DNA from: Strongyloides papillosus
Taxonomy: Eukaryota > Nematoda > Chromadorea > Rhabditida > Strongyloididae
Direction of reading: 5' to 3'
DNA length: 64,000 bases
Assembly: GCA_005656395.1 (NCBI GenBank)
Contig: SRSI01000027.1
Coordinates: 124,001 to 188,000 of the forward strand
The translations under genes were made by a program, and so were the position numbers. Under the pieces are notes generated by a model that ran no database searches, was not told the origin of the DNA, and saw only the letters and a program-made list of their open reading frames with translations. Below are positions 55,682 through 58,600 of this stretch, piece after piece; within the stretch, counting starts at the first letter, position 1, and each line of letters begins with the position of its first letter.

Positions 55682-58600
55682 ATGAAGACGATATTTCGCC
55701 GGACTAAACGCAATGATGCGGACATTTTAAGTTTTGAAACTGCAGTTGAAAAGTTGAAGCCTCAATGGCGCAAGAATCAAGAGGACGCTCTTAACAAAAG
55801 CGCAGAAGAACAACAAGAGGTTTATCAACACATGAAGCAGGAATTTGACAGCCTACGCAGAAAATATGGAATCACAGCCGAATTACAACCACCAATATTC
55901 AAATTCAAAGTTACAGATACCACGGAACAACAAAACAAATTGAATCAGGATTTAATGAAGAACATACGACCAGATGGACTTTTAGTACCTTTTAATGGCA
56001 CATCAGTACGCGACTTGGAAAAATGGATTAACCAAACATTGAACATGCTTAAGACGATTGCCTTGACCGAAGAACGTATTCCCCTAATGATGAAAATTGC
56101 TAAGAATTACTTGAATAAGCTCATACCAGATGGAAACAGATTTGATAACATTATGAAACGTGCATGGACTAACAAAGAAGATGACATTGAAACAATATTT
56201 AACAAAATGATGAATATTCTACATTCTTCTGGAATTGCTGAAAATGAGAAATGTAAATTGGAAGCACCAATACTTGGTCAGAATGAATCCGTTTTGAATT
56301 ATAGCAAACGCTTTGAAGAATATCATAAGCAACTGGAAGGAACAGATGAATTCAACAGAATTATTCATGCTGATACTATTAGTACGAGACTTTATGTTCT
56401 TTTATTAAAAGGATTGAACAATTTTATTAAGAAACACCTTCCAATACCAGGTTTACAAAAGATGAAGTATGAAGAAGTTATTGAAAAACTTACAGAAGTA
56501 GAAAATACTGCCTTAATATTCGGAGATAGTAACCAGATTAATGCTATTAACAACCAACGTCCATTCAAAAAGAAATTTTTTAATAAGAACAACAGAAACT
56601 ACAAACCCCGTTACAATATGAATTCTTCTAGTTACAAGAAAAATTTACCACATGGTAACAATTATGAAAAGAAAAATACGAACAACTCATATAAAAAGAA
56701 ACCATATACCAGCTATAAATCGAACAAATACAGCTCTAAACGCAACCATATGAACAACATTGAAGCGACCAATTCTAGACTTGATGAGACATGCAACCAA
56801 TTAAAAGAACTAACTTTGGTTATTAAGAATGCCTTTACAATTTGTATTTTGATATTTTGCTTATGTCTACCACTTACTGGAGCAACCAATGTTGTATGCT
56901 TAACAGAGCCGAAGAACTTTAAATTGTTATACAAAAATTATAGAAATTTTATAAAGGACGATGCTTTGCCAATGCAAATATACAGAATGCCTAGTAGTTG
57001 TATGTTGACAGATCCCAGTGTTTATGTGAAAATTAATTCCATATATATAAATGACAAAGATAATTCAGAACTTCAATTGCACAATACAGAAGCAATGTGT
57101 GATACTACCAAAATATTTGAAGATATAAATGGTAATAAATATGGTGTTGTACCTATCATTACTAATAGCTATAAAGTATCTGCTGTAAAAAGAGCTAGTC
57201 ACTACTTGGAATATTTTGATAATTTTGAAAGTACAGAGAAATGCCCTGACATTGTTGAACTGTCAAATGATCCACCAGTGAAGGTAGAACCAATAATCCC
57301 ATCACAGCTGCCTGCCGCATCAGATACGTCAATAGTACTTAGAAAACGACCCCCAATCGAACAAACAGATGATGTTGTAGTCAAGATACGTAAATCTACT
57401 GACGATGAATTAGCACGATGTGAAGATGATAAGTTACAATTAAAGAATGCATTAAGCAAGTTGGAACTTGAGAAGGAACAATGGTTGAAGGACAAAGCGT
57501 CATTGGAGCGAGCAATCCAAGAGCAAAATACTAAATATGAAAGTTTACGATTAAATTTACAATCACAACTGGATCAGAAAGATAAGGACATTCAAACATT
57601 AAATAGCCGGATAAGTGACTATCAAACGTCTGTTTCGGAGAGAACACAACAACTTCGGAATTTGCAACAACAACTGCAATCTTTATCTTCATCTGTGAAA
57701 GCAAACGATCCTAAGGATTTACTTCAAAAATTGCACAATCTGGAAACATATATGAATAACTTTAAATGTCCCACAATCCCAACACTATCTTGTCCACCTT
57801 GCGATCTTAAAAACGTTAATGCCAATCTGAATAATTTGAAACATCGAACATCAACAGATCTGGATAAACGCATATCTGGAATTGAAAATAGCATGACGAA
57901 ACTTGAACACGCGATAAATTCCTATACACCTACTATTGATGTACGACCAGAAATAAACGAATTGCACACAGCTATATCAGAGATTCCTACAATTTTGAAA
58001 CAACTGAAAGAAGAAAATAACGAAATCAAATTGTCTACTTCTGCAACATCGGTAACTTGTCACTGTGCAAACTCACCTGATTTATCGGAATGGTTAACAA
58101 ACATACCAAAAACAGGTATTGAGGAAACCATGACAGGTATGCCTAGTAGCATTGTAGCAATTATTTCTATTATTATGACATTATTGACTAAACATGGAAT
58201 TCATCATTTTCGAGATAAGTTTAATTCACAACCCACCAGAACAAGAGAAGAAGTCCCATTGTATATTGTAGACGATTCACCCAAATATCGTTCGATTCAA
58301 GTACGAACAGATGAGAAAATGGAAATAAACGAAATACTGCATGAAGCAAGTCCTATTATTACTTTAAATATTGGCACTACACGTTTGGATACACTAATAG
58401 ATACTGGAGCTAATCTCAATGTAATACACTGGAATAGTATTGAACAATTAAGTGATAAATACAAAAGTGAGATAAGAACTACAACACAGAGAGCACGTGC
58501 TGCGAATGGACAGCCTATGAAATTTGAGGGAGAAGTTGATGTTTATTTAACAATTGGAAATAGACATATTGCAGTACCAACTCTCATAAGTAAAGAAATT

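What the first reader, a model, noticed from the sequence alone, without database searches (positions are those of the whole stretch)
56800..58250. Membrane/coiled-coil ectodomain module embedded between Gag and protease of a gypsy element
Within one uninterrupted 1986-codon frame, a signal-peptide-like segment (residues 383-402), a Cys-containing region, about 200 residues of coiled coil and a second hydrophobic segment (about 822-840) separate Gag from protease. Envelope genes of errantiviruses and retroviruses lie 3' of pol. Here, if both hydrophobic segments span the membrane, Gag and Pol would stay cytosolic and the coiled-coil part would face outside, which is coherent for a particle that buds. 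The long coiled coil plus Cys cluster recalls class I fusion or receptor-like stalks, but no homology is claimed. The element's LTRs are identical, so the arrangement was carried by a recently active copy.
Basis: partly seen in the sequence, partly recalled or inferred. Interest (0 to 1): 0.88.

Follow-up and report, generated by a model that had tools for sequence, protein, structure and literature searches.

The report
Surface-protein module inside retrotransposon polyprotein
Gypsy-type jumping genes of Strongyloides roundworms carry, between their capsid part and their enzymes, a conserved stretch that looks like a cell-surface protein (secretion signal, outside domain, long stalk, membrane anchor), a place where an envelope-like part is not expected.

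Summary
The element (LTRs 55327-55527, 62519-62719; ORF 55682-61642) most likely belongs to Strongyloides papillosus. Residues 383-840 read as a type I membrane module between Gag and protease: signal peptide, four-cysteine domain, coiled-coil stalk, and a weaker transmembrane segment. Of 20 relatives fetched (mostly long-frame copies), 18 carry it whole; two are deletion derivatives that also lost the protease active site. Ten of ten public relatives spanning Gag to PR have the signal segment.

Purifying selection acts on it (dN/dS about 0.11, dS about 0.9). N-glycosylation sequons are depleted in the stalk (9 seen, 41 expected) but not overall in Gag or Pol, as expected of a stalk that passes through the ER. 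A short motif (VNxI), noticed afterwards, flanks the module in 15 of 19 elements on each side; I read it as protease sites. The four-cysteine domain is predicted PH-like, with weak matches to rabies G domain III and herpes gB.

Best reading: an Env-like surface protein made inside Gag-Pol, with flavivirus-like topology. Topology is well supported; a role in budding or entry is inferred. No class I fusion peptide was seen. ICTV places Metaviridae Env downstream of integrase.

The parts
55327..55527 (+). 5' LTR (TG...CA), identical to the 3' LTR; AATA flank at 55323-55326
62519..62719 (+). 3' LTR; AATA flank at 62720-62723
55682..61642 (+). single Gag-module-Pol frame, 1986 aa
55682..56749 (+). 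Gag-like part, residues 1-356, basic C-terminal half; no Pfam hit here, but relative L058 has a CCHC zinc knuckle in this place
56750..56764 (+). upstream VNxI-type motif (MNNIE), candidate protease site
   Evidence: inference
56828..56884 (+). signal-peptide-like segment, residues 383-401, likely cut after TGA
56885..57271 (+). four-cysteine domain (C406, C440, C473, C521), predicted PH-like fold
57338..57358 (+). basic linker LRKRPPI, possible dibasic processing site or none
   Evidence: inference
57383..58036 (+). coiled-coil-rich stalk; strongest stretches residues 568-676 and 757-785
58055..58066 (+). juxtamembrane cysteines C793 and C795
58142..58195 (+). second hydrophobic segment, residues 821-838, likely stop-transfer/TM, followed by basic residues
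58322..58339 (+). downstream VNxI-type motif (EINEIL), candidate protease site
   Evidence: inference
58400..58411 (+). protease active-site motif DTGA
59162..61639 (+). reverse transcriptase, RNase H, integrase (pieces P0005, P0004)

Best explanation
The module is the surface (Env-like) protein of a Strongyloides gypsy lineage, made as an in-frame internal segment of Gag-Pol. Proposed order: Gag-NC is translated in the cytosol; the internal signal peptide threads about 420 residues into the ER and is cut by signal peptidase; the four-cysteine PH-like head and the coiled-coil stalk fold in the lumen; the second hydrophobic segment stops transfer so that PR-RT-IN stay cytosolic; the element's PR then cuts at VNxI-type sites on both cytosolic flanks, giving Gag, a stalked type I surface protein, and Pol. 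The protein would sit on membrane-derived particles or on the cell surface and serve spread between cells or worms. Supported by computation: conservation, selection, lumenal signatures. Inferred: stop-transfer, protease sites, oligomer, particle, function. Rough odds: membrane topology 0.9, PR excision 0.6, Env-like role 0.55.
For: 18 of 20 fetched relatives have the whole module; ten of ten public relatives spanning Gag to PR have the signal segment. Four-cysteine spacing kept in 11 of 12 aligned loci at 13-19% identity to the window, bar the near copy L039, and in 7 of 7 further proteins. dN/dS 0.108 and 0.121 for the two halves of the module against 0.070 for Gag and 0.065 for PR-RT start. 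Sequons in the stalk 9 seen, 41 expected (z -5.6), reversed motif 31 to 41; second set 14 to 24 (z -2.2), reversed 29 to 24. VNxI motif at both flanks, 15 of 19 each. No Met in the last 90 residues before the signal in L051, L055 and L056 and no conserved splice acceptor, which favours polyprotein expression. Head domain predicted at about 90 pLDDT; nearly the same order of elements from L056.
Against: The second segment is hydrophobic beyond shuffles in only 1 of 12 elements. L058 has another cysteine spacing and a proline-rich, weakly coiled stalk, and lacks both motifs. The VNxI motif was chosen after seeing it, is missing on one or both sides in 7 of 19, and also occurs elsewhere, for example just after the PR active site. 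Sequon counts treat related sequences as independent; in Pol the NxS half alone is low (11 to 20.6), and two controls stray (head N..[ST] 2 to 7.6; Pol [ST]xN 73 to 54). The window's own module has no sequon at all, so no glycan is implied here. No fusion peptide. No experiment.
Confidence: 0.6

Rival explanations
1. Membrane anchor only: the module replaces a matrix domain and holds Gag and Pol at the ER or plasma membrane for assembly. The head and stalk are spacer or oligomeriser, with no receptor or entry role.
For: Same topology evidence; no fusion peptide; strong fold or sequence match to a known fusion protein is absent.
Against: An anchor alone would not need a conserved four-cysteine globular head and a 460-700 aa segment.
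Confidence: 0.25
2. Captured host receptor-like or adhesion protein used for another purpose, for example decoy or niche signalling, not for particle spread.
For: Relatives carry other extra genes 3' of pol; type I stalked architecture is common in hosts (recalled).
Against: No relative outside such elements appeared in the protein searches, whose sensitivity is limited.
Confidence: 0.08
3. A cytosolic Gag spacer or tether whose hydrophobic stretches do not enter membranes.
For: Second segment weak; Cer1 Gag of C. elegans has a cytosolic N-terminal coiled coil (PMC10309623, section 7).
Against: Conserved signal-like cut sites, cysteine pattern, and sequon depletion confined to the stalk.
Confidence: 0.06
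4. Neutral insertion or assembly artefact of one copy.
For: Two near copies lack most or all of it.
Against: Both are deletions that also removed the PR active site; the module is open in 18 of 20 relatives and under selection, and three modules equal public S. papillosus proteins.
Confidence: 0.01

Closest known systems
Env-bearing Ty3/gypsy elements (Errantivirus and others, Metaviridae)
   Same: LTR element with Gag, PR-RT-RH-IN and a predicted membrane surface protein
   Different: their Env is encoded downstream of integrase (ICTV profile PMC7879559, passages); here it lies inside Gag-Pol before PR, and no fusion peptide was seen
Cer1 of C. elegans
   Same: nematode gypsy element with one Gag-Pol frame without a stop between gag and pol (PMC10309623, passages and section 7)
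   Different: its coiled coil is at the Gag N-terminus before CA, and a word search of the paper found no 'transmembrane' or 'signal peptide'
MDG1-group elements with sORF2 (FAST-like)
   Same: LTR retrotransposons using a non-Env membrane protein for cell-to-cell spread (PMC11952523, abstract and sections 8 and 10)
   Different: sORF2 is a separate small ORF of about 63-107 aa; the module is a large in-frame polyprotein segment
Class III fusion glycoproteins (rhabdovirus G, herpesvirus gB)
   Same: extracellular PH-like domain; VSV G domain III is described as pleckstrin homology (PMC3280520, passages)
Flavivirus-type structural polyproteins (recalled)
   Same: cytosolic capsid, internal signal, lumenal glycoprotein and cytosolic enzymes in one chain
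   Different: a works-like comparison only; no homology tested

Membership tests
Ty3/gypsy (Metaviridae) | PR-RT-RNase H-IN order between LTRs | tested here: met
   Pfam RVP, RVT_1, RT_RNaseH, Integrase_H2C2, rve above cut-off; LTRs
Ty3/gypsy (Metaviridae) | Gag with CA and NC | tested here: inconclusive
   No Pfam hit for the window or 9 relatives; L058 zf-CCHC 2.2e-5 and sub-threshold Gag hits
Metaviridae Env | encoded downstream of integrase | tested here: not met
   module lies before PR; no sense frame of 35 aa or more with a KD19 of 1.5 between pol stop and 3' LTR of the window
Metaviridae Env | membrane-anchored surface protein | tested here: inconclusive
   signal, cysteines and sequon pattern fit; second segment weak; no wet test
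Class I fusion protein | fusion peptide next to a helical core | tested here: not met
   best KD19 inside the ectodomain 0.26-1.19 in 12 modules; a short or unusual peptide could escape
Class I fusion protein | trimeric coiled coil | not testable with these tools
   monomer predictions only
Class III fusion protein | PH-like domain | tested here: inconclusive
Class III fusion protein | fusion loops and the other domains | not tested
   no model of a further beta domain arose
sORF2/FAST-like protein | separate small sense ORF with one TM | tested here: not met
   module is a polyprotein segment of about 460-700 aa

The most novel reading that the evidence does not exclude
A nematode retroelement lineage became enveloped by a route not described for LTR elements: its surface glycoprotein is an internal, protease-excised segment of Gag-Pol with flavivirus-like topology, and it is an unrecognised type, a disulfide-bonded PH-like head on a long coiled-coil stalk.
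Probability: 0.5. Interest if true: 0.9.

Novelty: new variant of a known kind. Interest (0 to 1): 0.8.

Why it matters
Retroviruses are thought to have arisen from LTR retrotransposons that gained an envelope gene (stated in part in the listing of PMC6525542; rest recalled). This lineage suggests a second solution: a surface protein inside the polyprotein, made one to one with Gag. Many elements keep long open frames in this genome, so spread between cells or worms becomes testable. Sequon depletion is also a cheap genomic test for lumenal exposure of polyprotein segments.

Tried and rejected
Pfam on Gag and module: no hit above curated cut-offs; the module's weak hits look like coiled-coil noise. 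PDB sequence search: for the domain alignment one hit at E 0.32, for Gag two at E 0.044 and 1.5, none convincing. Full L056 module in BFVD and VIA-align: long-helix matches. Heptad Fourier power passes P<0.05 in 6 of 12 elements and not in the window (P 0.07); a windowed heptad score was then used. Separate expression of the module by splicing or internal start: no conserved acceptor or Met. Module outside Strongyloides-type proteins: module search scored 7983 capped candidates and gave 1 protein; the A7 profile gave 28, of which six match 27-100% of the query (four named Strongyloides, two without organism) and 22 match only 8-19%. Host check that fits less well: P0021, a named S. papillosus fragment, is at best 93% here, and P0022 of S. 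venezuelensis 90%. FAST-like reading of the antisense small gene: its N-terminal part before the TM is about 8 residues, too short (my reading).

My errors: a misframed row (ratio 2.74), corrected; misframed translation, right frame; wrong frames, repeated; L058 cut too late for its TM. The KD scale, insertion scale and heptad weights are recalled or home-made, so scores are crude. No TMHMM, SignalP or DeepCoil was available.

Papers: searches listed none that describes a membrane module between Gag and PR; listings only were judged except for the papers named with passages. The library lacks most subscription journals.

Full report
Host and element. Three modules from this genome (L042, L043, L050) are 100% identical over their length to UniRef proteins of Strongyloides papillosus, so the window most likely comes from that species; a fragment named for it matches only at 93% elsewhere in the genome, so a very close relative is not excluded. 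The genome held is 58.2 Mb in 79 contigs. The element has identical LTRs with a 4-base duplication, one 1986-aa frame, and PR, RT, RNase H and IN in gypsy order.

What lies between Gag and PR. Residues 383-401 look like a signal peptide with a cut after TGA. Cysteines 406, 440, 473 and 521 follow, then a basic linker, coiled-coil-like stretches, cysteines 793 and 795, and a hydrophobic segment 821-838 followed by basic residues. In the window copy neither Gag nor PR-RT start has a comparable window.

Lineage, not copy. An RT search gave 108 matches. I fetched the 5' halves of 20 relatives, chosen mostly for long frames, with RT identities of 40-97%. 18 have the complete module, two of these (L049, L053) with a frame break between Gag and module. 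L040 keeps the signal and start of the domain; L041 has none of it. L041 misses window 56605-58476 and L040 misses 57045-58756, so both lost the PR active site at 58400 as well. Of 15 public proteins found by the PR-RT region, 12 carry a Strongyloides name and three show no organism. All ten that span Gag to PR have the signal segment; the other five are fragments or a gene model that skips it; the second segment passes KD 1.55 in five of the 15. In an RT tree of 66 sequences the labelled module-bearing elements lie in one clade with some untested fragments, and the window's other two gypsy elements lie outside it; supports were not read, and L054-L058 were not in the tree. The element at 3464-7294 has no hydrophobic segment before PR (KD 0.85).

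The upstream part is Gag. Pfam is silent in 9 of 10 relatives, but L058 has a CCHC knuckle (2.2e-5, above cut-off) and sub-threshold Gag matches before its signal. So the order is Gag-NC, module, PR. In Cer1 the coiled coil is instead N-terminal to CA (PMC10309623, section 7).

Selection. Against the C5 copy, dN/dS is 0.070 for Gag, 0.108 for signal plus four-Cys domain, 0.121 for linker, coiled coil and TM, and 0.065 for PR-RT start, at dS 0.65-1.24. In six close pairs the module ratio is 0.12-0.58, above that of PR in four (its window-C5 coiled-coil row is misframed and withdrawn). Protein identity to the C5 copy is 81% for the module and 96% for RT: conserved, but the faster part.

A topology signature. 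In 11 elements NxS/T is depleted in the stalk (9 to 41.1, z -5.6); the reversed motif is slightly low (31 to 40.8, z -1.7); other spacings and residues are near expectation. Gag is 60 to 65 and Pol 34 to 39, though within Pol NxS alone is low (11 to 20.6). In seven further proteins the stalk has 14 to 24 (z -2.2) and the reversed motif 29 to 24; two controls there stray (head N..[ST] 2 to 7.6; Pol [ST]xN 73 to 54). The simplest reading is selection against glycans on a coiled coil that passes through the ER. In the L054-L056 branch two or three sequons sit at matching places in the head. Relatedness is ignored, so z values are upper limits.

Candidate excision sites. [VIM]N.[IV] occurs 13-34 residues before the signal in 15 of 19 elements and 24-33 before the PR Asp in 15 of 19; expected 1.4 and 2.2. 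The motif was picked after seeing it, and the 19 include related pairs. Under the proposed topology both places are cytosolic, where PR is. That PR cuts there is inference.

Verdict. Selection and membrane topology are well supported, an Env-like role is the best guess, and class I fusion is not supported. ICTV places Env of Metaviridae downstream of integrase (PMC7879559, passages). Ten paper searches, named in Tried and rejected, listed no description of this arrangement.

Noticed in passing
62097-61782, minus strand (exon 1 62097-61913, exon 2 61863-61782): Antisense small gene in the 3' part of the element: ATG, one TM-like stretch, basic tail, GT-AG intron, about 88 aa. In the C5 copy (L059) exon 1 has nine amino-acid changes, all at residues 7-27, and residues 28-62 are identical despite 15 base changes in synonymous codons.
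   Followed up: partly
L060, L062, L064, 3' of pol: Antisense open stretches of 350, 404 and 356 codons with a C.C motif; alignment identity to the first only 21% and 11%; no Pfam hit above cut-off.
   Followed up: partly
L065, L067, 3' of pol: Sense acidic open stretches of 261 and 443 codons, related to each other (BLASTP E 1e-7, 23% over 113).
   Followed up: partly
L066:300-569: Antisense 90-codon stretch with one TM and a basic juxtamembrane run; weak sub-threshold Pfam Vpu hit (E 0.005).
   Followed up: no
L065 and L066, end of the pol frame: GRGRPRK-like AT-hook motifs (name recalled) at the integrase C-terminus, three and two copies.
   Followed up: no
L058 (C1:799800-806300): Most distant module carrier (RT 40%): CCHC knuckle in Gag, other cysteine spacing, proline-rich stalk, and DDGS instead of DTGA in the protease.
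   Followed up: partly
3464-7294 (+), 40394-44056 (+), 49188-52633 (-): Other retroelement frames in the window: one-frame gypsy-type, one-frame copia-type by order of domains (my reading), and a broken gypsy-type.
   Followed up: partly
public proteins P0006, P0024: S. papillosus gene models of these elements lack the signal peptide, probably through predicted introns, so annotation hides the module.
   Followed up: no
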